Part shown: one piece after another, positions 5,081 through 25,100 of the stretch
Layout of the letters: every line of letters begins with the position of its first letter
Numbering within the stretch: position 1 is the stretch's first letter
Source: Flammeovirgaceae bacterium BBD 1991-12
Lineage (GTDB): Bacteria; Bacteroidota; Bacteroidia; Cytophagales; Cyclobacteriaceae
Assembly: GCA_001657315.1 (NCBI GenBank)
Contig: LYSV01000047.1
Location: 1 to 35,714, forward strand
Length of the DNA stretch: 35,714 bases
Reading direction: 5' to 3'
Notes under the pieces: model-generated
Seen by the model: only the letters and a program-made list of their open reading frames with translations
The model's database searches: none
Told to the model about the DNA's origin: nothing
Made by a program: the position numbers and the translations under genes

Positions 5081-5094
5081 ACGTATTCGATGTT

Positions 5095-6539: not shown

Positions 6540-6559
6540 CGCCCGATCTCAACCTTCAC

Positions 6560-7378
6560 TCAGTCCTTTATTTTCTTATAAACCTTTTCTTCATTGTTTA
6601 CGACTATGAATTTGTTCGCTATATCACACCATATAAGGGACTCTTTAGACCCTATGGCGAGATATCCATATTTGAAAAGACTTTCATGGAACTTTTTCAG
6701 CACCTCATTTTGCAGGGTCTGATTAAAGTATATCATCACGTTTCTACACAACACCAGATCGAATTTATTGAAGATCCCTCCTTTGACCAGGTCGTGCTTG
6801 CGGAAGGAGACATCCAGAAGAAGTGACTTGTCCATCACCGCCTTACCATTCACCTCCTTGTAGTAGTCCCTGAGTGATCCGGTGCCCTGAAAACGGATAT
6901 AGTTCTTTTCATTCAGGTCCATATTCTTCAGGTGGAACGCCCCTGCCCTGGCACGTTCGAGAATATTGGTGTCCAGATCAGTGGCTATGATCTGTGCATT
7001 GTGAAGAATATCCATTTCCTTGAGTAAAACAGCCATGGAAAAGACCTCCTCACCGGAAGAGCAGCCGGCATGCCATATCCTTATCTTTTGGTGGTTAAGC
7101 AAAATACCGGGTATAATGTCGTCCCGCAGCACCCTCCAGAATGACGGATCGCGAAACATCTCCGTAACATTGACAGTGATCTCATTCAAAAATTCCTCGA
7201 GGAACAGAGGCTGAACCAATTTGGTTATCAAAGTGTCTACACTGATGTTGTACAGTTCGAGGATTCTCACAATGCGCCGTTTAAAGGAAGACATGGCATA
7301 GTTTGTAAAGTCATACCCATGTTTTGTCTTTATGAGCTCCGTTATCCTCCTTAGATCTGCTATGTCAATGTCTTTCAT
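6560..7378 (-). CDS. cheR: CheR-type protein-glutamate O-methyltransferase
   Basis: 272 residues, usual length for CheR. An N-terminal helical domain (about 1-75) contains TVNVTEMFRDPSFW. The SAM-dependent methyltransferase domain carries the SAM loop IWHAGCSSGEEVFSMA (about 101-116), the acidic ATDLD strand (about 132-136) and DLVLCRNVMIYF (about 207-218). It transfers methyl groups from S-adenosylmethionine to receptor glutamates. It lies 83 bases after the HAMP/PAS sensor and 20 bases before cheB. CheR/CheB without CheA/CheW are common in bacteria that pair them with PAS/GAF sensors, which fits this operon better than flagellar chemotaxis. The ATG at 7378 is the natural start. Confidence 0.94.
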   Translation of the reverse strand: MKDIDIADLRRITELIKTKHGYDFTNYAMSSFKRRIVRILELYNISVDTLITKLVQPLFLEEFLNEITVNVTEMFRDPSFWRVLRDDIIPGILLNHQKIRIWHAGCSSGEEVFSMAVLLKEMDILHNAQIIATDLDTNILERARAGAFHLKNMDLNEKNYIRFQGTGSLRDYYKEVNGKAVMDKSLLLDVSFRKHDLVKGGIFNKFDLVLCRNVMIYFNQTLQNEVLKKFHESLFKYGYLAIGSKESLIWCDIANKFIVVNNEEKVYKKIKD

Positions 7379-7461
7379 TCCGTCGCGTTACTGTTCTTTC
7401 TGATATTTGTTATCTGTACACTATTCCTCTATACCTGTTATAGCCGCCAGGTAAGTAATAA

Positions 7462-9735: not shown

Positions 9736-9813
9736 TTAAGCCTAACGTTAAAAAAATAGCTAAACAACGAAATTACAATTTATTGTCAAATATTAAAGTT
9801 TTACTTTAAGTAT

Positions 9814-10284
9814 CTACAGGCTTTCCTTATCAAAACAAAATGGCAGCAACATTTTCGCGTTGTCCGTGACTATCCAGTCACCATTGGGAGACTGTAGAAT
9901 AACCTGTATAGGAGAGTTTTGTTTCAGCTCATACTCCACGATCACCTGACGGCAGATGCCACAGGGGGATACAGGTCTGAAATGCGTATCAGCACGTCTT
10001 TTGGCCACCGTAGCCAGGGCCATTATCTTTTCATCGGGCAGCACCGAAGCGGTATGGAAGAGGGCCACCCTCTCTGCACACAGGCCGGCCGGATAGGAAG
10101 CATTCTCCTGGTTTGAACCAGTGATCACCTGTCCATTGCCCAGCATCAGCGCCGCGCCTACCTGATAGTTTGAATAAGGTGAATAGCTGGAAGCTGACGC
10201 TTCCATGGCCTGGGTGATGAGATTCTTGTGGGATGGATCAAGAAGATCTTTGCTTTTGTAGACCCTGAAGTCCTCTTCGTGCAT
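9814..10284 (-). CDS. cdd: Cytidine deaminase
   Basis: 156 residues, the short homotetrameric type. Zinc site: Cys69 and catalytic Glu71 in GLCAERVALF, then Cys108 and Cys111 in PCGICRQ. The substrate segment SPYSNYQVGAAL is present. It deaminates cytidine and deoxycytidine to uridine and deoxyuridine in pyrimidine salvage, in the cytoplasm. It lies 78 bases upstream of the sensor operon on the same strand, so read-through is possible, but the function is unrelated. It is divergent from the saccharopine-dehydrogenase-like gene, with 131 bases between the starts. The ATG at 10284 gives an N-terminus of usual length (MHEEDFRVYKSKDLL). Confidence 0.96.
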   Translation of the reverse strand: MHEEDFRVYKSKDLLDPSHKNLITQAMEASASSYSPYSNYQVGAALMLGNGQVITGSNQENASYPAGLCAERVALFHTASVLPDEKIMALATVAKRRADTHFRPVSPCGICRQVIVEYELKQNSPIQVILQSPNGDWIVTDNAKMLLPFCFDKESL

Positions 10285-10415
10285 TCCTGATACTAATAAA
10301 TTATGCTAACCAGGTGCAATATAACACTACATATCGGACCTTAAAATTTTATACCTGATTAATGGCGGTTAACCCTGACAATTTCTTTTAATTTGGAGGC
10401 CTCAGAGATACAACT

Positions 10416-11747
10416 ATGAAAATAATACTGGTGCTGGGCGCAGGCAGGTCTGCCCATTCTCTCATTGAATATTTACTGACAAGAGCCGAAGAAGGGCAAT
10501 GGAAAGTACGCGTAGGCGATCACTCGCTGGCGCTGGCCAGGGAAAAATGCAGGGATCACAGGCACGCCGAAACCTTTCAGTTCGATATCCTGGATGAAAC
10601 CCAGCGGCAGCAGGAGATAGCCGGAGCGGACATTGTCATCTCTATGCTACCAGCCCGGTTCCATCCCCTGGTGGCTGAACTGTGTGTGGAGCATGGCGTG
10701 AATATGGTCACAGCCTCCTACGTTTCGCCGGAAATGAAAGCGCTTGACCGGGAGGCCCGGAACAAGGGGGTCATCCTGCTCAACGAATGTGGCCTGGATC
10801 CCGGTATAGATCATATGTCCGCTATGAAGGTCATCGATAAGATCCGCGAAAACGGGGCTGATCTAACCGCCTTTGAGACATTCACCGGTGGACTGCTGGC
10901 CCCCGTGGCAGATGATAATCCATGGGAGTACAAATTCACCTGGAACCCAAGAAATGTAGTGCTGGCCGGCCAGGGGATTGTCAAGTTCATTCAGGAAAAT
11001 ACCTATAAATATATTCCGTATCACAAGCTTTTCCGCAGAACGGAGCAGGTGTATATTCCTGAATATGGATATTTTGAAGGATATGCCAACCGTGATTCCC
11101 TTAAGTATCTGGATGTTTACGGTCTCAGAGGCATCAAAACCATATACCGGGGTACCTTCAGACGGCCGGGATTTTGCCGGGCGTGGGACATCTTCGTGCA
11201 ACTTGGCGCCACTGATGATACGTATGAAATGGAAGGAGTGGATGAAATGACCCATAGGGATTTCATCAATTCATTCCTTTCCTACAACCCGCACGACTCC
11301 GTGGAGCTAAAGCTGGCCCACTACATGGGGCTTGATATAGAAGGTCCTGAAATGCATCGTCTGAGATGGGCAGGTATATTTGATCAGACACCTATCGGAC
11401 TGGACAAGGGCACACCCGCACAAGTACTGGAGCACATTCTTAAAAAGAAATGGACCCTGTCTGAAGATGACCGGGATATGATCGTGATGTGGCATAAATT
11501 TGAGTATGTGGAAAACGGAAAGGAGAGAGAAATCAACAGCACTCTGGTAGCCATAGGCGATGATGCGGTAAATACTGCCATGTCAAAGACAGTGGGACTG
11601 CCGGTAGGGATAGCCACACGCCTGATCCTGGAAGGAAAAATCAGCGAAAAGGGGGTACAGATACCTATCCAAAAAGGAATTTATGACCCTATTCTTACCG
11701 AGCTTTCCGGCCTGGGCTTTGAAATGATGGAGGAGCAGAGGAAGTAG
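10416..11747 (+). CDS. Saccharopine dehydrogenase-like oxidoreductase
   Basis: 443 residues. An N-terminal Rossmann fold begins at once with ILVLGAGRSAHSLIEYL; the second strand RVGDHS and ADIVISMLPARFHPLVAELC follow the saccharopine dehydrogenase family, as does the NECGLDPGIDHMSAMKVID motif at the junction with the C-terminal catalytic domain (FETFTGGLLAP, NPWEYKFTWNPRNVV). The family converts saccharopine to lysine or the reverse; related enzymes make carboxynorspermidine. Length and motifs fit the Bacteroidota version annotated as a saccharopine dehydrogenase C-terminal-domain protein, probably in lysine metabolism. The exact substrate is not decided by the sequence. The start is the ATG at 10416, about 15 bases after TTTGGAGGCC. 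It is divergent from cdd. No partner lysine gene lies beside it. Confidence 0.9.
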   Translation: MKIILVLGAGRSAHSLIEYLLTRAEEGQWKVRVGDHSLALAREKCRDHRHAETFQFDILDETQRQQEIAGADIVISMLPARFHPLVAELCVEHGVNMVTASYVSPEMKALDREARNKGVILLNECGLDPGIDHMSAMKVIDKIRENGADLTAFETFTGGLLAPVADDNPWEYKFTWNPRNVVLAGQGIVKFIQENTYKYIPYHKLFRRTEQVYIPEYGYFEGYANRDSLKYLDVYGLRGIKTIYRGTFRRPGFCRAWDIFVQLGATDDTYEMEGVDEMTHRDFINSFLSYNPHDSVELKLAHYMGLDIEGPEMHRLRWAGIFDQTPIGLDKGTPAQVLEHILKKKWTLSEDDRDMIVMWHKFEYVENGKEREINSTLVAIGDDAVNTAMSKTVGLPVGIATRLILEGKISEKGVQIPIQKGIYDPILTELSGLGFEMMEEQRK

Positions 11748-11772
11748 TTATTGGGTTATTAGTTATTAGTGA

Positions 11773-11814
11773 TCTCAGTGGCTCTCCGTGGTTCCCTCCG
11801 TTTTCTCTGTGGTT
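11773..11814. repeat. CTC(T/C)GTGG-type short repeat tract
   Basis: Downstream of the saccharopine-dehydrogenase-like gene lie closely spaced variants of one motif: CTCAGTGG, CTCTCCGTGG, TTCCCTCCG and CTCTGTGG. Tracts built of such CCACAGAG/CTCTGTGG units recur between genes in many bacterial genomes; I recall this from general experience and cannot show it here. The surrounding 11748-11997 also contains AT-rich TTATTAGGTTATTG-like runs (11748-11770 and 11951-11985), echoed at about 13121-13141. No gene is seen in this gap. Confidence 0.4.
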
Positions 11815-11997
11815 AAACATTTGACTACCTGGATATTAAACCTAAAACTCACGTTAACTTAATAACCATAATTTTTCCTCAGCTGATAACGATCAACAAT
11901 GGACACACAAAATCTTCTTTTTTGGTTCCGGCTTGGGGGTCTGCAGAACGCCTTAATAACTCAATTACCCAGTAACTCAATAACTATCGGCAAAGTA

Positions 11998-12666
11998 CTA
12001 AAACCGGCCGAACTTAAGGGTAAGAAAGTAGTTCATGTTCTCAAAATCACCGGAGCTGGCAAAGTCCAGGTCGAGGTCCTGTGTGAAACGCTTGCTCATA
12101 CCCAGCGCTATTCTGAAGTGCCGTGCTATGTTGATCTCTACCGCTACTCCAGGCTCTACATACCAGAATACATCATCGTCAATGATCTCTTCATCTTCAG
12201 GTTCGTTATCCTCCCAATCGTCATGAAATCCAAGCCAGCCGGCTCCCGCAGCTACGGGAAAGGTAACGTGCACTATTTCATTGGAAAACAAAATAGGCTC
12301 CAGGAACATCCCACCATATCCTCCCAGCAGTACGGCATCTCTGTCAGGCAGCAGGTTTTCAAATTCTGCAGTGGGGATGAGTCCATGCCCTTCCAGCCCT
12401 ATGGCCAGGGTCCGGTTGATGATCCATCCTCCCCGGAAACCTGCCATGATAATGGTCTCATTCTGAAAATCGGAGGAACGAAAGGAGACTGCGCCAAAAC
12501 CACCGGAATGGTATCCGTTGCCGGTCAGGGTTTTTATCCGGCCACGATGACGGTATTTTGTTTTTTTATGCTTTACGTAGGTGACCTCATCGTCATTTTC
12601 ATCCTGCGCCCATCCCGGGCAGGCGGCAAACAGGGTAATAAGAATGGTGGTAAATAAAGTTTTCAT
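11998..12666 (-). CDS. Secreted beta-rich protein, probable outer-membrane barrel, unknown function
   Basis: 222 residues from the ATG at 12666. That start gives a clean signal peptide, MKTLFTTILITLFAACPGWAQ, cleaved near residue 21. The mature part begins acidic and basic (DENDDEVTYVKHKKTKYRHRGR) and continues as alternating hydrophobic strands with many Gly and aromatics (GGFGAVSFRSS, IMAGFRGGWIINRTLAIGLEGHGL, LGGYGGMFLEP), ending in FLTLKFGRF. An aromatic C-terminal residue on a beta strand is typical of outer-membrane barrels. It resembles the small Bacteroidota beta-barrel proteins without known function. It stands alone: the plus-strand neighbours converge on it at one side and diverge at the other. 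A longer reading from 12870 is open but would bury the signal peptide. Confidence 0.75.
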   Translation of the reverse strand: MKTLFTTILITLFAACPGWAQDENDDEVTYVKHKKTKYRHRGRIKTLTGNGYHSGGFGAVSFRSSDFQNETIIMAGFRGGWIINRTLAIGLEGHGLIPTAEFENLLPDRDAVLLGGYGGMFLEPILFSNEIVHVTFPVAAGAGWLGFHDDWEDNEPEDEEIIDDDVFWYVEPGVAVEINIARHFRIALGMSKRFTQDLDLDFASSGDFENMNYFLTLKFGRF

Positions 12667-13202
12667 ATTATTTGAGTCTTTGCTGTAAAGACATCTTTGT
12701 TTGAAACAGGTTTCCACAACTTGTAAAAAATTGTTATAGGTTGATGATCCTACCGGGTTTGAATTGGCGGCTTTGATATTGAGTTTGGCATTGCAGATCG
12801 TGTTGTATGGTTTGTTCATGTTGCCGGTTGCCAGTAAACCGGTTAGGGATAAAGCCACCGCATATAACAAACGGCTACGGATGTGAACTGGTTAAAACCA
12901 GGATAGGTTAAGCACATAACCAGGCAACAAGAATCATGGCACACAAGAAAAAAGGAATACGCACGCCGACTTTCATGCAAACCGGATCCAATAAGCTTCA
13001 TAAAATTTAGCCAGAAGCCAGAAGTTGAACATTATTCCAGCTTCAAACTTCTGACTTCCGGCTTCCGACTCCCCGGCTTTCGTAGAGAGTTATCCCGATA
13101 AAGAAACGAACCTTCCCCAACCACTTAATAACCCATCCCAATACCCTCCATTCATACCAAAAGATTTTTATTTATCCGGGGAAACCCATTAATTGCAGAC
13201 CT
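12667..13202. other. Intergenic region with short inverted repeats, no gene seen
   Basis: This is 536 bases between two divergent starts. Visible elements are a 6-bp stem CTGGTT/AACCAG around an AA loop (about 12888-12901), GGTTA/TAACC at about 12906-12921, and a larger imperfect hairpin at 13009-13064 listed separately. An ATG-led extension of the minus-strand gene is open to 12870 but does not look coding. No clear TAnnTTTG promoter was found for either neighbour. Confidence 0.5.
13009..13064. repeat. Imperfect inverted repeat of GAAGCC/GGCTTC units
   Basis: The left arm (13009-13029) contains AGCCAGAAGCCAGAAG followed by TTGAA. The right arm (13042-13064) contains TTCAAACTTCTGACTTCC followed by GGCTT. 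They pair with a few mismatches around a 12-base loop. The arms are themselves made of short GAAGCC/GAAGTC repeats. The element lies about 140 bases upstream of the small plus-strand gene. It could be a dispersed repeat or a transcript hairpin; the sequence does not decide. Confidence 0.5.
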
Positions 13203-13448
13203 ATGTTCGGATGGTTTAAAAAGAAGGATAAAAAGGAGAAGTTACCACAGTTACTGGACTTAAACAACACCCCCCTGCAGGAAGGAGATATTGTAGATGC
13301 TCTGCGTTATGAGCTGGGCAAATGCCGGCTGCTTCTTGTCGATGAGGAATATATCTACGAATCTATAGATACCGGAGAGCAGGTGAGCTGGCTTAAGATG
13401 ATCGATGCTTCCACGGATAATCAAAAGGTGAAGAAGGCGAAGGAGTGA
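13203..13448 (+). CDS. Small protein of unknown function, 81 residues
   Basis: I do not recognise a named family. The N-terminus is aromatic and very basic (MFGWFKKKDKKEKLPQ). The middle is a compact alpha/beta-looking stretch: TPLQEGDIVDALRYELGK, CRLLLVDEEYIYES, TGEQVSWLKMIDA. The end is charged (NQKVKKAKE). No signal peptide, membrane segment or cysteine pair is present. The ATG at 13203 is the only good start. Composition and codon use look like real coding DNA, and small proteins of this look are frequent in Cytophagales. It has no operon partner: the next gene on either side is more than 500 bases away on the opposite strand. Confidence 0.65.
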   Translation: MFGWFKKKDKKEKLPQLLDLNNTPLQEGDIVDALRYELGKCRLLLVDEEYIYESIDTGEQVSWLKMIDASTDNQKVKKAKE

Positions 13449-13726
13449 CCGGGATTATGGAGGATTATCAGGATAAAACAGGATTGGGGGAATTGGGTAA
13501 TGATGAAGTTCTCATAGCTTCATGTAGGATCATAGTACTAGGGTATGGATGATTTGTAAGCCTCTTCTGCATTATAGCCAATATAAATTTAGGTCCGGGC
13601 GATGAAAGTAGCGTCTTTTGAGTTTAACCGGGCGGCGCCTATGCCGTTTCAGGTCATTGGCACTACTCATGCTCGACCAGTTCCGTCTCATCATTCATAG
13701 CTCATAGTCCCTTGCAGGAGATCTGA
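13449..13726. other. Intergenic region, nothing identified
   Basis: 278 bases between the small unknown gene and the 21-bp repeat array. No plausible coding frame, terminator hairpin or promoter consensus was recognised. The stretch around 13590-13650 is more GC-rich than its surroundings but shows no start codon and frame worth reporting. Confidence 0.4.
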
Positions 13727-14020
13727 GGAGGTGTAATGCCCCAACGAGCACTGTCACTTCTTTTTCCTGCGGTGGAATGATCTTTACGAGCGTTTCCACC
13801 ATTCTCCGGTGCGTTTTGGTAATTCCCACGTGCGTTTTTATGATTCCCACATGCGGTGGAAGGGTTCGGGGATGCGTTTTTGTCATTGATGCCAGCGGTG
13901 GAGTGATTACCCGATGCGTTTTAGTGGTTTTTTAGTGCGGTGGAATGATTCTTTTATGCCCTGCAACGATTCTGTACCGCGGTTTAGTGATCCTGTACCA
14001 CGTTTCAATGTTACAATCCT
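13727..14020. repeat. Degenerate 21-bp tandem repeat array, about 14 units
   Basis: From 13769 to 14020 the DNA falls into twelve consecutive units of exactly 21 bases. Most begin with GCGGTGG (13769, 13853, 13895, 13937) or GCGTTTT/GCGTTTC (13790, 13811, 13832, 13874, 13916); the last three (13958, 13979, 14000) are more diverged. Units share a central T-ATT or GATT and often a CCCAC(G/A)T end. Two weaker units precede it from 13727. Since 21 is seven codons, each frame repeats as a heptad; on the minus strand a frame open through units 1-8 reads KTHVGIT and PPHVGII-type heptads. There is no constant repeat with unique spacers, so it is not CRISPR. It could be a decaying minisatellite or a remnant coding repeat. 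Confidence 0.8.
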
Positions 14021-14338
14021 GGCTGGTGTAAAATTATGATGGGTTAAGTGATATTTTTCTTTGATTCCGGCATTCGGGTCAAATAAAAGGTAAGAAGCAA
14101 TGCCTTACAGCATGGGGTAGATTTGTTTAGGTTAAAAGAATTTTAATTATTTGCTATAAATATATTAAGTTTTTGATCTTACGCCAATATGGAGCGTGTT
14201 TTTACAGGATCATAGGGGTATTTTGAGTAGTGTCGTTGAAAGCCGCATGACAAATGCTAAATCGTTGTCACGGTTCGTTCATTCAGTCTCGTTGTAAACG
14301 AGAACGATTAAGTTTAGGTAACCATCTTTAGTGTATCA
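14021..14338. other. Intergenic region with one short hairpin
   Basis: 318 AT-rich bases between the repeat array and the toxin-antitoxin remnant. At 14287-14303 a perfect 7-bp stem TCTCGTT/AACGAGA closes a GTA loop, about 36 bases past the end of the minus-strand remnant. It lacks a following T-run, so a terminator role is uncertain. No coding frame was found. Confidence 0.4.
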
Positions 14339-14497
14339 CTATTTTTTGGATTCCCTGATTCTCCTCCTGCGATCTTCGTAATATTTCAAGACCTGTTCGG
14401 ACGTCATTCCTTCCAACTCCTTATCGATCTTATTCCGAATATCCCTCATCATTTTTACGGCATCGAAAGTTTTTTCCGTTTTTATGTTCGTTTTCAT
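14339..14497 (-). CDS. Possible separately translated antitoxin partner, 52 residues
   Basis: Inside the fused frame an ATG at 14497 begins MKTNIKTEKTFDAVKMMRD, which matches how the small partner proteins of Bacteroidota PIN toxins start. AAGAGAGAT lies about 6-14 bases ahead and could serve as a ribosome binding site. Removing one copy of the adjacent 13-bp duplication restores an ATGA overlap between toxin stop and this ATG. The product is helical and highly charged, ending YEDRRRRIRESKK. It may still be made from its own start although the toxin is broken. Its role as antitoxin rests on family context. Confidence 0.5.
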   Translation of the reverse strand: MKTNIKTEKTFDAVKMMRDIRNKIDKELEGMTSEQVLKYYEDRRRRIRESKK

Positions 14498-14500
14498 TTT

Positions 14501-14526
14501 AATATCTCTCTTGAATATCTCTCTTG
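14501..14526 (-). repeat. 13-bp tandem duplication causing a frameshift
   Basis: On the minus strand CAAGAGAGATATT occurs twice in direct succession (plus-strand copies 14501-14513 and 14514-14526). Thirteen is not a multiple of three, so the downstream frame changes. With one copy the toxin would read TPREILK followed by TGA, overlapping the antitoxin ATG. Confidence 0.9.
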
Positions 14527-14909
14527 GTGTTCTTATCTCTATCGGTTTATACCCTTTCTTCAAATTTACTGCGTTGTAAAGTCTTATTTTATCAAGGTTT
14601 ACAATATGTTTAAAGTTCCAACTCACAAGAATATCGATGTTATTTACTGTGGCTGTGGCAATGTGTTGGCAATCTACCAGACTCTTAAGTCCAACTATCT
14701 GTTCTTTTATGTATTCCCTTGAAAGAAGTTCAGATTCCTCATCAAATGTTAATTCAATTATTCTTGCCCGGGTAAGCTGTTTAAAAAATGCAATAACCTC
14801 TGTTGGTGCTCCTATCAATTCACCCTCCAGCAGGTCAGAAACTGCAATTTCAAAATAACCATCCTGTACCTGTTGGAAAAAGAGTTCCGTCCAAAATTTA
14901 AACTCCTCA

Positions 14910-14943
14910 TTTGTTTATCAACAATAAAGTGTTGATAAACAAA
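14910..14943. repeat. Perfect 14-bp inverted repeat
   Basis: TTTGTTTATCAACA (14910-14923) is followed by ATAAAG and then its exact reverse complement TGTTGATAAACAAA (14930-14943). It sits exactly where the N-terminus of the PIN toxin should be encoded, and supplies the in-frame TAA. It could be a site-specific recombination or protein-binding site, the end of an excised element, or a transcript hairpin of the toxin-antitoxin pair. Confidence 0.85.
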
Positions 14944-15006
14944 GATTTAAAACGATTTTAAGGATCGACTAATTATATATATCAATAAGAAGTTATACAT
15001 AGCAGA

Positions 15007-15096
15007 TCAATCAAAAATACTTTCAGTAATGCTTCTTCCGCTGTATAAACTCCACCCAAAATCTGCGATTGTGTAAACCACCCCAATTGGGGCTAC
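15007..15096 (-). pseudogene. Orphan copy of the Rhs toxin C-terminal tail
   Basis: These 90 bases encode the same last 29 residues as the Rhs protein (VAPIGVVYTIADFGW to the terminal SITESIFD), followed by TGA. The Rhs copy is at 15498-15587 and ends in TAA. Ten of the 29 codons differ and all ten changes are synonymous. Upstream the frame continues a few codons into unrelated residues (NTAANSRA) and then overlaps the end of the membrane-protein gene in another frame. There is no start, so it is a fragment left by recombination between toxin cassettes or alleles. It is separated from the Rhs gene by the putative immunity gene. Confidence 0.88.
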
Positions 15097-15118
15097 AGCA
15101 CGGGAATTTGCAGCTGTA

Positions 15119-15496
15119 TTAAAGTAGGTAAATCAAAAAAATCAATGGAAGAATGGCGATTACTATAAAGAATAGGGAGTTAATAATTGTCAGAACTGAA
15201 GCATTTTCATACTTTTTTATAATTTTTGAAACTCTATTTTTATTTAAATAAACATAACAAAGAATCATCAATCCAATAATTAATGGAGCATAGTAGTATT
15301 TACTGCGACTACTGTCGTGATTAAAGGATTGTGAGAAATCAAATAATTCTAAATGCCTTAGAAATACTAATACAAAGAGTAAGTTGGAAATCATGACGAA
15401 AACAGAAAATGTCACTGCTCCGTCACGGACATCATCAGCTCCAACTCTTTTTAAGAACTTATAAATGAATATAAATATAAATTCATACGGGTTCAT
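15119..15496 (-). CDS. Small multi-pass membrane protein, candidate immunity protein
   Basis: 125 residues from the ATG at 15496 (MNPYEFIFIFIYKFL); a TTG at 15505 is also in frame but less likely. There are three clear hydrophobic segments, about 30-50 (VFVMISNLLFVLVFL), 72-90 (APLIIGLMILCYVYL) and 102-124 (VLTIINSLFFIVIAILPLIF), with perhaps a fourth at the N-terminus. It begins one base after the Rhs stop codon on the same strand, the usual place for a polymorphic-toxin immunity gene. Immunity proteins of pore-forming toxins are typically small multi-pass membrane proteins, so this would fit a membrane-acting toxin tip. I recognise no named family. It is noticeably richer in A+T than the Rhs genes, as immunity genes often are. 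Confidence 0.7.
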   Translation of the reverse strand: MNPYEFIFIFIYKFLKRVGADDVRDGAVTFSVFVMISNLLFVLVFLRHLELFDFSQSFNHDSSRSKYYYAPLIIGLMILCYVYLNKNRVSKIIKKYENASVLTIINSLFFIVIAILPLIFLIYLL

Positions 15497-15497
15497 A

Positions 15498-18400
15498 TTA
15501 ATCAAAAATACTTTCCGTTATACTTCTTCCGCTGTAGAGACTCCATCCAAAATCTGCGATTGTATAGACAACCCCAATCGGCGCTACTACTGCGTTAACA
15601 CCTGGAATTACAGATCCTCCGGAAATAATTCCATTGATTATTAGATCCGCTTTGTGTGAATTTTTAAACTGACCATCTAGAGCGGCATCACCCAAAGTTA
15701 ATAATGCACTTGCGGCGGCAAACTTTCTTCCTAAACTCTTACCTGCCGCTTTGAGCCGCATCCATTCCTTCGGCCCAGCATATAATGGTTTATGAAGAGT
15801 AGCAGCAAAATTGGCCGTTGACCATATAGCAGCCTGTTTTTGCGCCTGGCTAATTACCGTGCCCCAAAAATCATGGTCCACCTCACCGGCAAAATCAACC
15901 CCTTGACTAGCCATGTTCCGCACAATTCTATGCTCTCCTGCATAAAATATGGCCTCGCCACCAGTAGCAGCAGCGAACCTACTATACGCATCCGCTACAC
16001 TTAGTGCCCCTCCATCAAACTGGCCGAATAGGCCGAATTCCTGCATTTGAGCTAGGCTTTCTTCGAACAAAAAGTCTTGTTCTACCTGGCTATTACCTAG
16101 AAATGCCCATTCGTGTGTATACCCATTATAGTAAGCCCCACTTATACCATTATGCGTCAGGGCTACATTTACGTAGGCCGATAGTGTCTCCCAAGAAGGC
16201 GCTCCGGTAAACAATTCTTCTAAAGCCTTATTCAATTGCAATTGCTCATAGCTTGGCCCATACATGCCCATACTGTTCGCATATCCACTACCATAATCGC
16301 TAAAGGACCCATTACCAAATCCATCTGCATCATGGGTCCGCTCATAGTGGAACATGACATGGTTTCTAAGCATGATCTCGTCGTACACCGAACGACCCCG
16401 GCCATAGTCTCCCATAGGATCATTGTAGTAGATCGGATCGTTGTTCGCAAATTGATACGGGGTCTGGCTACCAAATTGATCAGCCAATGGATCAATGCCA
16501 TTGAACCTCCCCAGTGCCGGATCATACTGCCGGTAAAAGGTTTCATAATTACCCGTCTGCTCGTTCAGCTCCGAGCCCTGGTTGTAAAGGTAGTTATTTT
16601 TCAGATCTGTTACCCGCATCCACGAGGAAGAGAACTGAAGGCCGAAGGGGTAATAGTCCGTACACTGCACCACCGGGCTTTCATGGATTGTCACTTCGAG
16701 ATCGTCATAATATACCTCGGCGTTGCTTTCGTTGGTAAGGTATACATACACAAACCCTTCTACGGGAGATACCGGCGCCGGTTGCATCTGCATGAGCATG
16801 GCTGCGCCTGTGGCGGCATCGTCCATCGCCCAGTGACCATACTGGGCCACGTTCATGTCTTTGTCAAAAATGATGTAGTTCAGGTAGGCCGCCACCTCGT
16901 TGTTACTGGGTGACTGTACCCCAAAACCGCCCATGGCAGGGTTGATAGCGTTATCAAAACTGTTATAGATCGCCTGTTCTGAGGTATTACCACCGTCTGC
17001 GCCTCCGAATATACCGGCTACGGCTGCAATAAGTGCAGTAGTATTGACTGTTGAGCTTCCATCGCCGTTACCATAGAACCCCTGAACGCTCATATCGATG
17101 ACATCACCGGGGTATACGGGTATGCTGATCCCCGGCCCGTCCACCGTACCCGGCAGCAGCCGGTATACCTGGTTGTGTGAAGTGGCAGATAGGTGCGTGG
17201 GACGATCACCGGCGGATAAATTGCTGAACAGGGCATCATCCTGCTGCTCCCATGCCTCCGTTTCCATGGTGGCACGGAAGGTGTGAATGCCCGGATCTGC
17301 CGTATAGATCAGCCGGATATTGCCCAAATGGTCAGTGTAGGCATACTGGTAATTAAACGAACCATCGGAAGGCGTATATACGATCCGCCCCTCAGCGTGG
17401 GAAAGGAACTGTAAAACATCATTCTCATACACGGCTCCCGCGAGATAGTCCGTAGTGGTGATCAGGGAATTGTTCTCATAAAGTTCCCTTGCCCGCTGTA
17501 TGCCATCCGCACTGTAAATATATTTTAATGTTCTACCGTCGTTGAAAACAACCTCGGCAGGTTTATTCAGAATATTGTAGGTAATGCTGGTGATCCCCTT
17601 GTGCACGTCGCTGGCCAGGTTGCCATTGACATCATAGGCATAGGTGGTACCGGAGGCATTGTCTGTAAAGCCCTCCGCCGTATTGCCGGTGTCATGTACG
17701 GCGGTCACCTGATTACCGCTGTAGCTGTAGGTCAGGTCATCAAGAGACATGGCCCCACCCATGGGGTCAGGAGCCTGACGGGTCAGGTTTTCTATGTTAC
17801 CATTGGTATCATAGCCGATGGCCGTCACGGCATGATGCTGGGCGTTTTGGGTGAACCCTGCCCCTGATCCATATCCTGCCTTGGTTATACGATCAGCCCT
17901 GTCATATTCATAGGCGTAGGCATTGGTTTGGCTATTCGCCACAAGATTGTTTTTCCACTTCATGGCGGTGATGTTACCATTATGCGCAGGGGTTTGCCCC
18001 AGGGCAGCCAGCGATCCATTATAGAGCAGTTCCATACCGAACAACCGGCCGGCGGGCAACTGGTCAGGGTCATTGATACTTTTCAGCCAGCCTCTGATCG
18101 TATAGGCGTAATCCACAGCCTGAAAGTAGCTGCCACCCGGGGCGGACTGGTGCAGGTTTTTTGCAGATAGCTGATCAAACTCATTATAGGTATAGGCGGC
18201 AAGGGTTACGGGTGCCGCTCCATTCACACTGTGAGTGATCTCCAGTAGACGACCGGCATGATCGTAGCTCATTTCCTGATGCACCGTTACTCCGTTTTGC
18301 ACACTCTGCGTAGCCAGTACCTGCCCGCTGAAATCGTACACTACGGTTGCCTTGTCCGTGGAGCCCTTATGGTTATCCGCATGCGTCTGTATCACCCGGC

Positions 18401-21400
18401 CATAGTCATCATAAAAGACCGCGCTGTACAGCCACTGGTTTGTATCCAGCATGCGGACCCCTCCACCCGTGGCACGCCCACGTACGCGGTTGAAAGCGGC
18501 GGTTTCCTGACCGGCCAGTTGAGTATTGTCATAGCTGTAGTCCGCCGTACCGTCCCTGTCAAAGTCATAATGATCGTAATAGCTGACCTGAAGTACCTGC
18601 AGCCCGGAAGTCGGAAAAGCCTGATTGGTATATCCCTGATACGTCGCATTGGCAGCCGCCTCCTCATACCATAGATCAGTACCATCATAATCCAGCGCAT
18701 CGAATAATCCCTGTACCGCCACACGTGTAGTTTGTGTATTGTTGGTATAAATACCTGAATAAACGGGTCGCTCCAGCCGGTCATGCTTGGAGAAGAACCA
18801 TTGGTTATGCTGCCGTAGCAGACCATCCTGGGTCAGCACAGGCCGGTCCAGGGGATCATATACGATATATTCCACCGCCTTACCGGGTACTTTTCTTTCG
18901 ACAAGCCTTCCCTTATCATCATATACATAAGTATAGATGAGATCCGCTACGGTTGAACTGTTGGCGTCAAGAGTACTTCCTGAACCCAGCAGTTCAACTG
19001 CCTTGGGTGGCAGGGTGTACAACAGTCTGCCCAGCTTGTCATGGATCATGTAGGTGTCCAGATACTGCCCGGCATCGGACTCTACCTTTTTGAGTATGGT
19101 CAGACCCTCACTGTCAGTATAGGTAATTACTTCATGATCATTTTCATCGGTCACCGTATTTTTGAACAGGGCATATGCGGCATAATAGCCGCTGGTGGTT
19201 CCGTCGGCCTTCCAGTAGCGAACTTCATCTGCCACATTATATCCATAGTCATAACGGACAGTGTGCCCGCCACCGGGCTGCCAGTCAGCACCGGGTGCCC
19301 CCTGTTCGATAACCCTTTGTAAGGGGGAAGATTCATACAGCGTTTGCGCATAAGGGGTCTCCCCCGGATAGTGTGAAGTATAAAAAGCTGTTTGTCCGGC
19401 TGATGCATTGCCGTAGTATTCACTACCTGTGGTGGTAAATGGTAGCCAGGCCCTTGTTACACGACCAAAGGCATCATAGGCCATAAACGATACCACATCC
19501 TTCCCTGAGGCGCTGGCCTCTTCTGCTACTTGCTGGACATCACGTCCCAAACCATCATAATATGTTCGCTGCACCACTTTCTCACCCTGTGCCACCGTCA
19601 GCCCATCCACGGAAAGAGGGTCTGTACGGGGTACTTTTACCTGTGTCACCTGCGTATAGTTCTCACCATTATGGTCTGGCTCCTGAGCGAACCATTTGAC
19701 ACGGAAGGGCGCCGAGTAGCCCTGAGTACCCAGGAAGTTGACTACCGCCCGGTACAGCCGGTCTCCATCCAGTTGGCTGAATGTAATGGTACTGGAAGTG
19801 CTCGATACAGTACGCCATCGCCATCGGTCTGAGACGTGGCTATAGCTGTAATGCTGCCAACGAAGGATCTCTCCCTGATATCCCTCCAAACGCAGTGTGC
19901 CACTACCACCGTCAATTACCATGTCGTCACCCGTGATGTACCCTTCAAAACCGGTCTGATTGACCGTTACCTGTGCCGTAGCTGACCAGATCGAGGGACA
20001 ACTGCCATTGGTGATCCGTGCCCTGAAGTCCGTGCTTCTGTCCAGGCTGGTAAACGGCAGGTCCGTGACCCCGGCAGAAGAGGATACATCCTGCCATGAG
20101 CCACCGTAGGCTCTCTTTTGCCATTTTGTAACCTGACCGGTATGGCTGCTGAGTTTCACCTGTCCACTGGCTGATCCCCAGAATTCTCCCCTTGAGGGCG
20201 CTATGGAACCTGCCAGAGACGAACTACTGATGCTGACTGTTTTGGTATTGGAATACAAAGTCCCGCAACTGCCAAAGAATGCCACCCGGTACTGGTAGCC
20301 ATTGAGGGCAGGTTCACTCAGGTTATCCCCTGTAGGCTGAGAGTCGATATGCACAAAGCCCGAGCCGGTGTTGCGCTGCCATGCTTTCAGAACGCCCTGC
20401 GACGAACCGGAAAGAGTGAGATTCACCGTGCCGGACTGACAGAATTCGGTATTCCCTGAAAGCATTCCTGCCGTTATGCTGTTATGCACTGAGATCGTTA
20501 CGGTGTTGGAATACAACGAGCCACAGTTTGAAGTAACCCTTCTCCGATAGTAGGTTCGTTGGGTGATCGTACCTGGTGGGTCATAACCGGCTCCGGTGTT
20601 GGTCCCGGAGGCTGGGGTCCAGTTTGTATTGTTATAGGAAACCTGCCATTGATAAGTATAGCTGCCGGACCCGCCAGAAGGAAGGGACTGACTGCTGATC
20701 AGTGGCGCTGCGCTGCCTGGACATACGGTTCGGTTACCGCTGATGGATCCCGCCGTTGGGCTATTGTACACTGAGATCGTTACTGTATTGGAATGCCGGG
20801 AGCGGCAGTTTGAGGTGACCCTTCTCCTATAGTAGGTTTGCTGTGTGATCGTACCTGGCGGATCATAGCTGGCTCCGGTGTTGGTCCCCGGAGCCGGGGT
20901 CCAGTTTGTATTGTTGTAGGAAACCTGCCACTGATAAGTATAGCTGCCGGACCCGCCGGTAGGGAGAGACTGACTGCTGATCAGCGGCGCTGCAACGCCT
21001 GGACATGCCGTTTGGTTACCACCAATGGACCCGGCTGTCAGGTTGCTGTATACTGAGATCGTTACTGTATTGGAATACAGGGAGCCGCATGAGAAGACCT
21101 TTCTCCTATAGTAGGTTCGCTGCGTAACAGCCCCGGACGGATCATAGCTGGCTCCCATGTTGGCCCCCGGGGCCAGGGTCCAGTTCATATTATCGTAGGA
21201 AACCTGCCATTGAAAAAGATAAGTGCCGGTACCCCCGGTAGGAAGAGACTGACTACTGATCTGTGGTGATGCGTCACCGGTACATACCGTTTGGTTACCA
21301 CCAATGGATCCGCCGGCTGTTAAGGTATTGTACACTGAGATCGTCACCGTATTGGAATACAACGAGCCACAGTTTGAGGTGACCTTTCTCCGGTAGTAGG

Positions 21401-22166
21401 TTCGTTGTGTAATAGTCCCTGGCGGATTATAGCTGGACCCTGTATTGGTCCCTGAGGCTGGGGTCCAGCTCGTATTGTTGTAGGAAACCTGCCACTGATA
21501 AGTATAACTGCCGGACCCACCGGCAGGGAGGGACTGACTTCTGATCAGTGGCGCTGCACTGCCTGAACATACGGTTCGGCTGCCGCTGATGGATCCGGCT
21601 GTCATGCCTGGATAATAGGTTACGGATACTCCAACCTTTGAGCTCCAGTAATACGCCCCATTGGTTTTCGCTACTAAATAGTAGGTACCAGAGGCACTAA
21701 CCTGGTAGGTTGAAGATGAATTTGACGTTGAATTGCCGTTAATATTGGTACCCTGCCAGTACCATGTAACACCGGATGGGGGTGTACCCCTCGTCAGGGT
21801 ACGGGTGCCACATACATTACTGGAAACAGTAGGTGTGGCAGGACGGGCAGGTCTACTAGAAATAATGATCACCTGTTTATCGGCAACAGTAGCGCCACCC
21901 CACGAGGATATCATTTTCAACTCACCGTTTCCGGGTGTGTCCCAAACTACCGTAGCCCAGTAGTGTGTTCCATTATAGGAATCACTGGTGATAGTACCTC
22001 CGGTGATTTCCCATGTTCCTCCCAGTATATTGACGCCAATATCAAAAGTGTATGTGTAATTTCTTCCTACAAGAGGTGTTCCATCGCCACTCAAAGTCAC
22101 CGGCTCCCACGCCTTTGCACCAGAGCACAAAAAAAAGAGTATGGAGATTAGTGTTAGTTCTTTCAT
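15498..22166 (-). CDS. Giant secreted Rhs/YD-repeat polymorphic toxin with Ig-like repeats
   Basis: 2222 residues. Signal peptide 1-19 (MKELTLISILFFLCSGAKA); four Ig-like repeats of about 94 residues at about 187-565, each with TYQWQVSY and YYRR(R/K)V; further Ig-like modules to about 800; a DUF6443-type N-terminal Rhs region about 830-980 (VVQRTYYDGLGRDVQQ); YD repeats about 990-1630, such as YDHAGRLLEI and YEYDRADRITKAG; YTDHLGNIRLIY near 1612; then the Rhs-associated core (YYPFGLQF, YDPALGRFNGIDPLADQFG) closing with NDPMGD near 1918. After the core comes a unique tip of about 300 residues ending in a Gly-rich hydrophobic tail. Rhs barrels enclose and deliver such tips. No known nuclease or deaminase motif is visible; the tail suggests membrane action. 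No C-terminal type IX sorting domain is seen. It starts directly after the stop of the 1374-residue partner. Confidence 0.92.
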   Translation of the reverse strand: MKELTLISILFFLCSGAKAWEPVTLSGDGTPLVGRNYTYTFDIGVNILGGTWEITGGTITSDSYNGTHYWATVVWDTPGNGELKMISSWGGATVADKQVIIISSRPARPATPTVSSNVCGTRTLTRGTPPSGVTWYWQGTNINGNSTSNSSSTYQVSASGTYYLVAKTNGAYYWSSKVGVSVTYYPGMTAGSISGSRTVCSGSAAPLIRSQSLPAGGSGSYTYQWQVSYNNTSWTPASGTNTGSSYNPPGTITQRTYYRRKVTSNCGSLYSNTVTISVYNTLTAGGSIGGNQTVCTGDASPQISSQSLPTGGTGTYLFQWQVSYDNMNWTLAPGANMGASYDPSGAVTQRTYYRRKVFSCGSLYSNTVTISVYSNLTAGSIGGNQTACPGVAAPLISSQSLPTGGSGSYTYQWQVSYNNTNWTPAPGTNTGASYDPPGTITQQTYYRRRVTSNCRSRHSNTVTISVYNSPTAGSISGNRTVCPGSAAPLISSQSLPSGGSGSYTYQWQVSYNNTNWTPASGTNTGAGYDPPGTITQRTYYRRRVTSNCGSLYSNTVTISVHNSITAGMLSGNTEFCQSGTVNLTLSGSSQGVLKAWQRNTGSGFVHIDSQPTGDNLSEPALNGYQYRVAFFGSCGTLYSNTKTVSISSSSLAGSIAPSRGEFWGSASGQVKLSSHTGQVTKWQKRAYGGSWQDVSSSAGVTDLPFTSLDRSTDFRARITNGSCPSIWSATAQVTVNQTGFEGYITGDDMVIDGGSGTLRLEGYQGEILRWQHYSYSHVSDRWRWRTVSSTSSTITFSQLDGDRLYRAVVNFLGTQGYSAPFRVKWFAQEPDHNGENYTQVTQVKVPRTDPLSVDGLTVAQGEKVVQRTYYDGLGRDVQQVAEEASASGKDVVSFMAYDAFGRVTRAWLPFTTTGSEYYGNASAGQTAFYTSHYPGETPYAQTLYESSPLQRVIEQGAPGADWQPGGGHTVRYDYGYNVADEVRYWKADGTTSGYYAAYALFKNTVTDENDHEVITYTDSEGLTILKKVESDAGQYLDTYMIHDKLGRLLYTLPPKAVELLGSGSTLDANSSTVADLIYTYVYDDKGRLVERKVPGKAVEYIVYDPLDRPVLTQDGLLRQHNQWFFSKHDRLERPVYSGIYTNNTQTTRVAVQGLFDALDYDGTDLWYEEAAANATYQGYTNQAFPTSGLQVLQVSYYDHYDFDRDGTADYSYDNTQLAGQETAAFNRVRGRATGGGVRMLDTNQWLYSAVFYDDYGRVIQTHADNHKGSTDKATVVYDFSGQVLATQSVQNGVTVHQEMSYDHAGRLLEITHSVNGAAPVTLAAYTYNEFDQLSAKNLHQSAPGGSYFQAVDYAYTIRGWLKSINDPDQLPAGRLFGMELLYNGSLAALGQTPAHNGNITAMKWKNNLVANSQTNAYAYEYDRADRITKAGYGSGAGFTQNAQHHAVTAIGYDTNGNIENLTRQAPDPMGGAMSLDDLTYSYSGNQVTAVHDTGNTAEGFTDNASGTTYAYDVNGNLASDVHKGITSITYNILNKPAEVVFNDGRTLKYIYSADGIQRARELYENNSLITTTDYLAGAVYENDVLQFLSHAEGRIVYTPSDGSFNYQYAYTDHLGNIRLIYTADPGIHTFRATMETEAWEQQDDALFSNLSAGDRPTHLSATSHNQVYRLLPGTVDGPGISIPVYPGDVIDMSVQGFYGNGDGSSTVNTTALIAAVAGIFGGADGGNTSEQAIYNSFDNAINPAMGGFGVQSPSNNEVAAYLNYIIFDKDMNVAQYGHWAMDDAATGAAMLMQMQPAPVSPVEGFVYVYLTNESNAEVYYDDLEVTIHESPVVQCTDYYPFGLQFSSSWMRVTDLKNNYLYNQGSELNEQTGNYETFYRQYDPALGRFNGIDPLADQFGSQTPYQFANNDPIYYNDPMGDYGRGRSVYDEIMLRNHVMFHYERTHDADGFGNGSFSDYGSGYANSMGMYGPSYEQLQLNKALEELFTGAPSWETLSAYVNVALTHNGISGAYYNGYTHEWAFLGNSQVEQDFLFEESLAQMQEFGLFGQFDGGALSVADAYSRFAAATGGEAIFYAGEHRIVRNMASQGVDFAGEVDHDFWGTVISQAQKQAAIWSTANFAATLHKPLYAGPKEWMRLKAAGKSLGRKFAAASALLTLGDAALDGQFKNSHKADLIINGIISGGSVIPGVNAVVAPIGVVYTIADFGWSLYSGRSITESIFD
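20470..21605 (-). repeat. Four tandem repeats of about 283 bp inside the Rhs gene
   Basis: Corresponding points such as GGATCC(G/C)GC...GT near 21592, 21306, 21024, 20741 and 20463 are spaced by about 278-286 bases, which is about 94 codons. The copies are strongly alike at DNA level (for example GACTGACTGCTGATCAG and CTGATAAGTATA recur). Each encodes an Ig-like module with two cysteines. Such similarity favours copy-number change by recombination. Confidence 0.85.
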
Positions 22167-25100
22167 TTATTGAGGGTTAGGGATGGAACAATAAGGATCG
22201 CTTTGAAATATACGAATGGAAATACCGGCCTCTCCGATTCTTTCACCACTGGCATTTTTGACTCTACATCTGTATAGACGGTTCTGCCGGTAGTTACTGA
22301 TTTTTATAATGGAAGAATTACCGGTAAGCAATGTTTCCTGTCCACCGTTCAAATTAGAGGCTGCCCATTCAAAGGTATGGCCCACTGGTGAATTCGTAAC
22401 CGTCGCCTTCAGTGTCAGACGATCCGTATCCGTGCTACAGCCGGGATTAGCCAAACGTGGGGTGGGCTGACAGGCATCAATACGGGTACCAAAGTTGGAG
22501 CATATCTCTATGGTAACAGGCCTTTCACTCACTCTTATGCGCTTATCCACCCATTTGGTTTCACCGGAATAGGTTATTTCAAGCCTTACAACATATGGGC
22601 CTTCCAGATTAAAGGTCAGTCCAACCGTAGGATCAGTAGTGACTATCGGGGTCCCAAAATTTGCCTGATCGATCTCTTTATAAGACCACTTGTATGAGGC
22701 AGCGCCAGGAAATGAAGATGGTGTAGCTAAAAAATCGATACTTTCACCAACATACCGCTCTGACGAATAAGTCATCCCCGGATGCCAGAGACTTCTGTCA
22801 CCCTTTTGACTATAGGTCTGTTTTTGACGGATATGACCGGCATGATCCCGGATATAGCTGAGGCGCCCCAGATCATCATAAACATAGCTATTGGTCTGAC
22901 CATTGGTAGTTTCTGCCAGTTTAAGCCCACCAGATCCGTACAGGTGGTGACTTACCCCGGCATGATACGGGGCTATCAGAATATCGTCAATGATCAGGGC
23001 TGCACTACTTTGCATACTTACATCGACTGCATCGGACAAGCCGGAAAGGTCAACTTCCTGTTCGTAATATTGCCAGTCTGCCCGTATACTGACCGGGCAT
23101 GTAACGTTGACTGGTGGATTTGTACCATCCGAAAAAACAAGTTGCAGATTGCTGTTTTGATCACTTTTATACCAGAAGGAAAGAACATAATCATTTTGTA
23201 CTTTGGTCAAAGTTCCTGAAAGGCTGTGCAATGATCCCGACTGAAAGTCGAGGGCGGAGCCGGCTATTCTCCCATTGGTCAGGGGGGGCCCCGTCCAGTT
23301 AGTCTCCACGTATTGAAGCTCAAAATCGCTGCTGTGTTCAAAATCAGTAAAAAGAACCTCATCTGCCAATGCACCTGATATTGAGGTTTTTAAGAACCCA
23401 GGCGCATCGTAGTGAGATCCCGCTTTGCTTTGCCTGGTGGACTTTATACTCTGCGGGATATTATTCTTATGAAAATCGGCGAATTCACTGTAATCCTTGA
23501 AATTGTTCTGATCAAACAGGAAAGTAGAACCCGAGCCATTCGACACACCGGAGGGCACAAAAGTATTGAGGGCCACAGGCTTATCCAGTACATACTCCCT
23601 GACCAGGTGGATCTGATCATCGGTAGATCCATACTCAAAAAGACCCACAGACCCACCCGATATGGTTTCATCCGTTCCATCTGTAACAACAGAGAGCCTT
23701 TCTATGGGCAGGCTTAACATGTTGTACAGCTGCATTTTCGTTAGCGCCCGGGACATGGCATCCCTGTTGGCCCATGGTGAAGTGGGCACATAGTCCTGCG
23801 GATAGGTGAATCTTTCTTCAAACTTCTTCCCGTTATCAAGGATGGTCTCCTGTCGTGTCAGATAGTGGTGGGAGGAACTTTCGTAGGAATAATTTACCGT
23901 AGTAGACCTCCGGGCTACGGAATTTGTATAGGTGCGCTCTATCGACTGTGTTCTGGCCACCCTCGATCCCACAAAGTATTCATAGGGTTGATACATGAAA
24001 AAAGGGAGATTGGCTTCAACCCATGATGTACCCTGGTCAAATGTGACCTGATAGCGTTGCGGATTTACATAACGGTCGAATGTGATCCCCTGAACAATAG
24101 TGTAAGGAGTTTCAAAACTGTAGGAGTAATGATAGCTTTTGACAGGAGAACCTGTCTCATCGTAATAGTATTCCGATTCCGGCAGGCCCTGTCTTCTGTA
24201 ATTGGATAACGTTCCATGGGGAAATTTAAAGGTGCCCTGCAGATCCGGTATAGGTTGGCAATCAAATTGCGAAGCAAATTCAGGTGCTTCCCGGGCAATC
24301 CATGTATTTCCTGCCTTCCACTCATTGTGTTGAGAAACCCCATGATAAACCGGTATGCTATAGTTAATGACATGGGTACCCCCTGGCACATTGGAAGTCA
24401 CCCGGCTGTAGGCCAGCGCCGGGCCCGACGCACCGGGACCGATATCCCGTTTCGTCCTCACCAGCAGTCGTTTAAAGACCTCTTCTTCCGGTAATCCGGC
24501 CATATCCTTGAAATAGGTAATATTGCCCGTTACCGGATGTTCGTGAAAATTAAGCTGGAAGGCATACTGTGGCTTGTACAGCAGTCTTCCACTTGAATTT
24601 CCGGCATCATCTTCATAACTGTATTTTTCAACAACAGTCTCTGCCATAGGGTCTGCACTGTATCTTTCGACCTTTTTTACCCTGAGCCCTCCTCCATATA
24701 CATTCATTCCAGCAAGTTGATCATAATAGCTATTGGGCTCATAGGTAATATCATGGATACCACCGTTAGGGGTTGTGATCCTTTTTAAACTACCGGCTGT
24801 GAGCAGCGACATATCAGCTTTCGCATACTTGCCGTCAAGTACAAAGAAGTCACCGGTGTATCCCGGTATAGGATAGTAGCGCATTCTGTCTTCGGTAGGT
24901 AAGTCCGGGTAAACAAACAGCCGCACGGGCTGACCGGAATTGAATGTTCCTCCATAGAAACCATAGGGATCGGCCAGGTCCGGGTTCCTTTCAGTTATAT
25001 AGGCGCTCTTGTTCTCAAGGTCTACGCCGTAGTATTCAAAAAAATAGGAGCCTGCCTCACTGAGCTCGGACCCCGTGGTCATTGACCTCAGATAAATATG

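What the first reader, a model, noticed from the sequence alone, without database searches (positions are those of the whole stretch)
15007..15587. Orphan Rhs tail identical in protein but not in DNA to the resident toxin tail
Over 29 codons the orphan copy (15007-15096) and the Rhs copy (15498-15587) differ at ten codons, all synonymous. The fragment is therefore not a recent slip copy; both descend from functional tails kept under purifying selection. This is a trace of cassette exchange, as with orphan tips in other polymorphic-toxin loci. The shared tail may be a conserved handle used as a recombination site between different tips.
Basis: partly seen in the sequence, partly recalled or inferred. 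Interest (0 to 1): 0.75.

Follow-up and report, generated by a model that had tools for sequence, protein, structure and literature searches.

The report
Eroded remnant of a displaced toxin tip
Beside a bacterial weapon gene lies a scrap of an older copy of the same toxin's tail, possibly followed by the start of its antidote gene: a worn-down relic of a known kind of cassette turnover, with no sign that the tail is a special recombination site.

Summary
dS is about 0.9; all-synonymous by chance is about 1e-7. The scrap is not a recent slip copy.

The tail looks like part of a toxin, not a free-standing handle. It is the C-terminal quarter of a ~105-aa domain whose relatives distantly match the Bacteroides T6SS effector Bfe1. 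Of 11 toxins with a clear tail match, 8 clearly carry the front of the domain and 3 are borderline. The gene after the resident toxin is a distant Bfi1-family, three-TM immunity gene. After the orphan's stop codon comes an ATG and 17 codons resembling the start of that immunity family, with moderate, mixed support.

Best reading: a toxin-tail/immunity-start junction left when an older allele was displaced downstream and eroded. A Fulvivirga relative keeps displaced tips that share a core-end segment, and another tail relic before an intact immunity gene. This is published rhs C-terminal displacement; a new member of a known kind, of modest interest.

The parts
15498..22166 (-). Resident Rhs gene, 2222 aa: N-terminal hydrophobic stretch that looks like a signal peptide (by eye), DUF6443, Rhs core; a DPxG motif (DPMGD) taken as the core end begins 307 residues before the C-terminus
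   Evidence: DUF6443 E 3.9e-36; Rhs_assc_core E 3.3e-11
15501..15815 (-). Toxin domain of the resident tip (last 105 aa), with a glycine-rich hydrophobic stretch; homologous to tips of other Bacteroidota Rhs proteins and, only through relatives, distantly to Bfe1
15498..15587 (-). Resident copy of the 29-residue tail plus stop codon
15119..15496 (-). Resident immunity gene, 125 aa, three hydrophobic segments, distant member of the Bfi1 immunity family
   Evidence: (E 1.8e-6, below the curated cut-off)
15007..15096 (-). Orphan copy of the 29-residue toxin tail plus stop codon
14947..15000 (-). Possible remnant of the orphan's own immunity gene start: MYNFLLIYIISRSLKSF and stop
   Evidence: moderate and mixed: rank 1 of 1400 and rank 2 of 4310 ATG 17-mers, nucleotide-shuffle p 0.011; but no local alignment with 7 immunity proteins reached shuffle p below 0.05
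14910..14943 (.). Perfect 14-nt inverted repeat with a 6-nt loop at the junction with the truncated PIN-like gene; its inner 13-nt arms were searched and found only here in this assembly
14339..14911 (-). PIN-like gene (name recalled) that lacks about its first 15 codons, including the DTSV stretch, compared with a paralogue at G000:C25

Best explanation
The scrap is the eroded junction (toxin 3' end plus, probably, immunity 5' end) of an older toxin/immunity cassette of the same type that once stood at this Rhs locus. A newer tip plus immunity pair now occupies the 3' end of the Rhs gene; the old pair was left downstream. Deletions then removed the body of the old toxin on the upstream side and most of the old immunity gene on the downstream side, where the scrap now runs into a PIN-like gene that has lost its own start. 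The tail's protein sequence is preserved because it is a constrained part of the toxin domain and because the erosion is young compared with the divergence of the two alleles. Shown: the two tails, the all-synonymous divergence, the domain and immunity families, the truncated PIN-like gene, and the displaced array in a relative. Inferred: that the MYNF stretch is an immunity start, that displacement and not old duplication made the second copy, the order of deletions, and that the toxin acts on membranes.
For: Tails identical in protein with 11 nt changes, all synonymous. An ATG that starts 9 nt after the first base of the orphan's stop codon opens MYNF, the start (as I place it) of immunity genes in two distant relatives, G746 and G722 (MYNFIFSFFY, MYNFVFWFFY), with MYDF, MYNY or MYHF in four others. 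It ranks 1 of 1400 ATG 17-mers in the window and 2 of 4310 in a larger set with six references. In the relative G014 a Rhs gene is followed by three blocks that all begin at the same point of its core end (89-94% DNA identity, 315, 316 and 730 nt); the third leads into the window's toxin subtype with its immunity gene. Beyond it a 19-codon tail relic of another toxin subtype precedes an intact Bfi-like immunity gene (tblastn E 0.001 over 15 residues, immunity E 6e-6). G002 (Fulvivirga imtechensis), G746 and G722 also carry further Rhs core-end or tip pieces after the immunity gene. The PIN-like gene next to the scrap has lost its start.
Against: The immunity-start match is short and its support mixed: pairwise shuffle p values run from 0.007 to 0.15, the nucleotide-shuffle p is 0.011, one unrelated 17-mer scored higher, and in local alignments of all three frames with 7 immunity proteins no piece, the MYNF piece included, reached shuffle p below 0.05. 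The resident immunity gene itself begins MNPYEF, not MYNF. No core-end sequence survives beside the scrap, so displacement here is argued from relatives. No second strain of this species was available. Displacement and old tandem duplication cannot be told apart from 87 nucleotides.
Confidence: 0.68

Rival explanations
1. Old tandem duplication inside the locus: the toxin/immunity pair was duplicated long ago, both copies stayed functional, then the downstream copy decayed. No incoming cassette is needed.
For: Same toxin type with an identical tail protein; in the window the only clear repeat of Rhs sequence downstream is the tail.
Against: dS of about 0.9 with no amino-acid change needs two long-maintained copies at one locus; a relative shows displaced tips with core-end arms, which fits turnover by incoming cassettes better.
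Confidence: 0.2
2. One reading: the tail is a conserved DNA or protein handle used as a recombination site between different tips.
For: Its end is conserved in protein (SITExLFD-like) in several distant relatives; the two copies flank the resident immunity gene as direct repeats 491 nt apart; in 3 of 11 clear tail bearers (G538, G627, G188) the front of the domain is only borderline (9.4, 9.1 and 8.4 bits against 8.6 for the best of 380 shuffled controls).
Against: In the other 8 of 11 clear tail bearers the front half is clear (11.9 to 127.9 bits), and the 3 borderline ones still exceed all 14 unrelated tips of this genome (at most 1.2 bits) and all 19 reversed toxins (at most 5.3 bits), and have a three- or four-TM neighbour gene; the tail is found nowhere else in this assembly; the DNA has diverged, longest exact run 17 nt; recombination between the copies would delete the resident immunity gene; the shared arm in the relative's array is the Rhs core end.
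Confidence: 0.05
3. Retained leader: toxin tails are kept before orphan immunity genes because they carry the translation start region of the immunity gene, and the scrap is what is left of such a unit.
For: In G014 a 19-codon tail relic sits directly before an intact immunity gene; toxin stop and immunity start lie close together or overlap in the loci I looked at (not counted).
Against: In the window the immunity gene itself is gone, so such a function cannot be acting now; only two relics are known here.
Confidence: 0.06

Closest known systems
rhs C-terminal displacement (Jackson et al. 2009, PMC2935791; passages seen)
   Same: Existing Rhs tips are displaced downstream by incoming tips through recombination in the core, leaving strings of detached tips; G014 shows core-end segments repeated in this way.
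   Different: In the window no core-end segment is left with the relic, only 29 codons of the toxin 3' end and possibly a piece of the immunity gene; the host is a Bacteroidota bacterium, the paper treats Enterobacteriaceae.
Orphan cdiA-CT/cdiI and rhs-CT/rhsI modules (Poole et al. 2011, PMC3150448; passages seen)
   Same: Detached toxin C-terminal pieces downstream of the main gene, normally with their own immunity gene; the paper mentions two species with fragments that lack the demarcating motif and lack immunity genes.
   Different: The relic is far too short to be a functional module.
Bfe1/Bfi1 T6SS effector-immunity pair of Bacteroides fragilis (NCBIfam NF053698, NF053699; passages of PMC6692515)
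   Same: Relatives of the resident toxin domain match the last part of Bfe1 (G175 E 2.7e-5, G722 E 0.0012); 10 of 16 neighbouring immunity proteins scanned match Bfi1, the window's own at E 1.8e-6.
   Different: The matches seen lie far below the curated cut-offs; the window's toxin itself does not match Bfe1 directly; here the domain is the tip of a 2222-aa Rhs protein.

Membership tests
Rhs / polymorphic toxin | Rhs core with associated core domain followed by a variable C-terminal tip | tested here: met
   Rhs_assc_core E 3.3e-11 at residues 1838-1919, DUF6443 E 3.9e-36; the C-termini of other Rhs-type open frames in this genome differ, and 14 of them score at most 1.2 bits with the front-half profile
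Rhs / polymorphic toxin | small immunity gene directly downstream of the tip | tested here: met
   125-aa gene whose ATG follows the Rhs stop codon after one nt; homologues sit next to homologous tips in relatives. Protection itself was not tested
Displaced (orphan) tip | detached copy of a toxin C-terminus downstream of the main gene | tested here: met
   15007-15096
Displaced (orphan) tip | fragment of Rhs core carried with the detached tip | tested here: not met
   no core-like sequence at the relic; met in the relative G014. The relic is therefore filed as the remnant of such a tip, not as an intact orphan module
Displaced (orphan) tip | own immunity gene after the detached tip | tested here: inconclusive
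   17-codon start-like remnant only, with mixed support
Bfe1/Bfi1 effector-immunity family | match to the curated family models above their cut-offs | tested here: not met
   window immunity 27.9 bits against a cut-off of 100; best toxin relative 23.8 bits against 315; window toxin no match
Bfe1/Bfi1 effector-immunity family | delivery by a type VI secretion system | not testable with these tools
   a T6SS locus exists elsewhere in this genome (G000:C47), but delivery of this Rhs protein was not and could not be tested

The most novel reading that the evidence does not exclude
Short toxin tails kept beside immunity genes are not mere debris: they are retained 3' arms or leaders that let new toxin-immunity cassettes be spliced in while the old immunity gene stays expressed, so that tail relics mark a regular, directional route of cassette replacement in Bacteroidota Rhs loci.
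Probability: 0.06. Interest if true: 0.6.

Novelty: new member of a known kind. Interest (0 to 1): 0.25.

Why it matters
It gives a sequence-level trace that an Rhs locus in Fulvivirga once held a second allele of its toxin, and it points to a distant Bfe1/Bfi1-like toxin-immunity family used as Rhs tips in several Bacteroidota lineages. It also weakens the idea of a tail handle: in the relative with an intact array, the shared segment is the end of the Rhs core. For a specialist the turnover itself is expected; the family link and the erosion stages are the useful part.

Tried and rejected
Tail as a separate module: disfavoured after tail-only searches. In the order set 6 of 390 genomes matched; besides the window's own genome, two hits were Rhs-type toxins (G627, G538) and three (G679, G641, G697) were, by my reading of their translations, unrelated membrane proteins matched by chance. 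In the phylum set 4 of 395 matched; the three others (G722, G746, G807) were Rhs-type toxins. The three chance hits were dropped before the comparison of 19 toxins (the window's included). Of the 13 of 390 genomes matched by the domain profile, three weak ones (G012, G082, G139) were also not carried over. All 19 matched a front-half profile in a 19-sequence set, but with controls that is clear for 16; G538, G627 and G188 score 9.4, 9.1 and 8.4 bits, beside 8.6 for the best of 380 shuffled sequences. The back-half profile is clear for 11 of 19. The profiles were built from three of the 19, most of the 19 were found with the whole domain, and one (G000:C47) is not an Rhs protein; the five tail-only finds are the unbiased ones, with the front clear in three (G722, G746, G807) and borderline in two. 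In a first small search 17 of 38 genomes matched at E up to 1, but apart from the window's own genome only G014 and G002 were well below chance level.

Structure: the toxin model has mean pLDDT 43.6 and was not used. The immunity model (mean pLDDT 74.3, helical) had no PDB match with E of 0.001 or less. Sequence profiles against the PDB gave only matches with E of 0.77 or more. Pfam gave nothing for the window's toxin domain at E up to 0.01; one of 17 family members matched a phage tape-measure model (E 1.3e-4). Pfam matches of the immunity family were scattered, one or two members of 16 each. Rfam found no family above its gathering score at 12000-17000. The inverted repeat at 14910-14943 has no other copy in the assembly; its role is unknown. 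Literature: Bfe1/Bfi1 were seen in passages only; the 2016 paper that I recall as their source is not held. A search for Fulvivirga with Rhs found one name list, and the listings (11 of 11, 15 of 78 and 10 of 59 papers listed) showed no paper titled on Bfe1-like domains as Rhs tips; this is no proof of absence.

Full report
OBSERVATION. On the minus strand the window carries an Rhs gene (22166-15498), a 125-aa gene (15496-15119) and then, after 22 nt, 29 codons and a stop (15096-15007) that repeat the last 29 codons of the Rhs gene. The proteins are identical, 10 of 29 codons differ synonymously by 11 nt, and the stop codon differs as well. DNA identity is 86% over 94 nt. For these codons 22-27% of random point changes would be synonymous, so 11 of 11 has a chance of 5e-8 to 5e-7; dS is 0.92.

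WHAT THE TAIL IS. The tail is the end of a ~105-aa domain that begins near a KPLYxGPK motif. Closest relatives are in the same genus: G014 and G002; the G002 contig is, base for base, contig 94 of Fulvivirga imtechensis AK7. With the 105-aa profile 13 of 390 genomes drawn from the family matched at E up to 0.001; with the 46-aa tail profile 6 of 390 in the order and 4 of 395 in the phylum, the window's own genome counted each time. Of the eight non-own tail hits, five are Rhs-type toxins and three look like chance.

IS THE TAIL SEPARABLE? I compared 19 toxins, the window's included. All 19 match the front half of the domain in a 19-sequence set, E 1e-40 to 0.0023. A control run sets the scale: 14 unrelated Rhs-type C-termini of this genome reach at most 1.2 bits, 19 reversed toxins 5.3, and 380 shuffled ones 8.6. 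Sixteen of 19 lie clearly above (11.9 bits or more); G538 (9.4), G627 (9.1) and G188 (8.4) are borderline. The back half (tail side) is clear in 11 of 19; of these 11, the front is clear in 8 and borderline in 3. So the tail was not found on a clearly unrelated tip, but three divergent cases are not settled by these profiles. G188 aligns with G014's tip over 162 residues in blastp (E 6e-6), which favours an ordinary divergent member. What differs most between relatives is the linker between the core end and the domain.

PARTNER GENE AND LIKELY ACTIVITY. The 125-aa neighbour has three hydrophobic segments and a weak match to the Bfi1 immunity family (E 1.8e-6, 27.9 bits against a cut-off of 100). 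Of 16 such neighbours scanned, 10 match the same family at E up to 0.01; the two immunity genes on G002's contig C94 and the weak one of G807 were not in that scan. On the toxin side 3 of 17 scanned members match the Bfe1 effector family, the best at E 2.7e-5 over the last part of the model; the window's own toxin does not match directly. Distant matches to both halves of one known pair make a Bfe1/Bfi1-like toxin-immunity system likely, though not a member by the curated thresholds. Bfe1 kills when placed in the periplasm (PMC6692515, citing Lim et al.; passages). With a glycine-rich hydrophobic stretch in the toxin domain and a membrane-embedded partner, a membrane-acting toxin is my inference; it was not tested, and the structure model of the toxin was too poor to use.

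WHAT FOLLOWS THE ORPHAN TAIL. An ATG that starts nine bases after the first base of the orphan's stop codon opens MYNFLLIYIISRSLKSF and a stop (14947-15000). Immunity genes of this subfamily begin, as I place their starts, MYNF in G746 and G722 and MYDF, MYNY, MYDF and MYHF in G014, G002, G106 and G175; the resident one begins MNPYEF. Against four relatives' starts it ranks first of 1400 ATG 17-mers in the window; with six references and a larger set it ranks second of 4310, with a nucleotide-shuffle p of 0.011. Against single relatives the shuffle p values lie between 0.007 and 0.15. In free local alignments of all three frames with seven immunity proteins no piece, this one included, came below p 0.05. 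I treat it as a likely but unproven immunity start; its place, directly after the tail, is the main argument.

SURROUNDINGS. Downstream, a perfect 14-nt inverted repeat (14910-14943), with no other copy in the assembly, adjoins a PIN-like gene that lacks about its first 15 codons compared with a paralogue at G000:C25 and genes in G003 and G012. So the scrap is cut off on both sides, as expected of debris. The genome has 16 matches to the Rhs core end, several on short open frames, some of them cut by contig ends, but the tail only here.

RELATIVES SHOW EARLIER STAGES. In G014 one Rhs gene is followed by three blocks that start at the same point of the core end: at 4219, 7205 and 12464 of L043, 91, 89 and 94% identical to the main gene over 315, 316 and 730 nt. 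The last runs on into the linker and leads into the window's toxin subtype with its immunity gene. Further on, a 19-codon tail relic of another subtype, MIPPYPCGLGFIPIGKKPN, stands directly before an intact Bfi-like immunity gene (L043:14243-14302 and 14303-14689; tblastn E 0.001 over 15 residues). G002, G746 and G722 also have further tip or core-end pieces after the immunity gene. The window's scrap looks like a later stage of the same decay.

MECHANISM. The best reading is rhs C-terminal displacement (Jackson et al. 2009, PMC2935791, passages) and orphan toxin/immunity modules (Poole et al. 2011, PMC3150448, passages), followed by erosion. Both describe strings of detached tips; the second mentions fragments without the demarcating motif or immunity gene. 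In the window the arm of core sequence is missing, so displacement is inferred from relatives, and an old tandem duplication remains possible. The handle idea is disfavoured: the copies share at most 17 identical nt in a row, the tail was not found on a clearly unrelated tip, recombination between the copies would remove the resident immunity gene, and the shared arm in the intact array is the core end.

VERDICT. Observation confirmed; interpretation partly supported. A new member of a known kind, interest 0.25.

Noticed in passing
L052 (G000:C47):8388-9575: A T6SS locus in the same genome (TssC, TssN, TssD, ClpB-like ATPase) encodes a LysM protein whose C-terminus resembles this Rhs toxin domain (blastp E 1.9e-7 to G014's tip; front-half profile 14.2 bits); the gene after it had no family match.
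   Followed up: partly
L043 (G014:C1), 2376-14689: Array of displaced Rhs tips, three blocks of which restart at the same point of the core end, with small genes between them and, at the end, an orphan immunity gene with a toxin-tail relic.
   Followed up: partly
14339-14911: PIN-like gene without about its first 15 codons; a paralogue with them is on G000:C25.
   Followed up: partly
14910-14943: Perfect 14-nt inverted repeat with a 6-nt loop, no other copy found in the assembly; terminator or scar, not resolved.
   Followed up: partly
13809-13855: Non-coding stretch with 2.2 imperfect copies of a 21-nt unit (GTGCGTTTTGATAATTCCCAC); similar words recur by eye around it.
   Followed up: no
22167-26291: 1374-aa gene directly upstream of the Rhs gene with only weak family matches (PLDc, YD repeat, both below cut-off); possible partner of the Rhs protein.
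   Followed up: no
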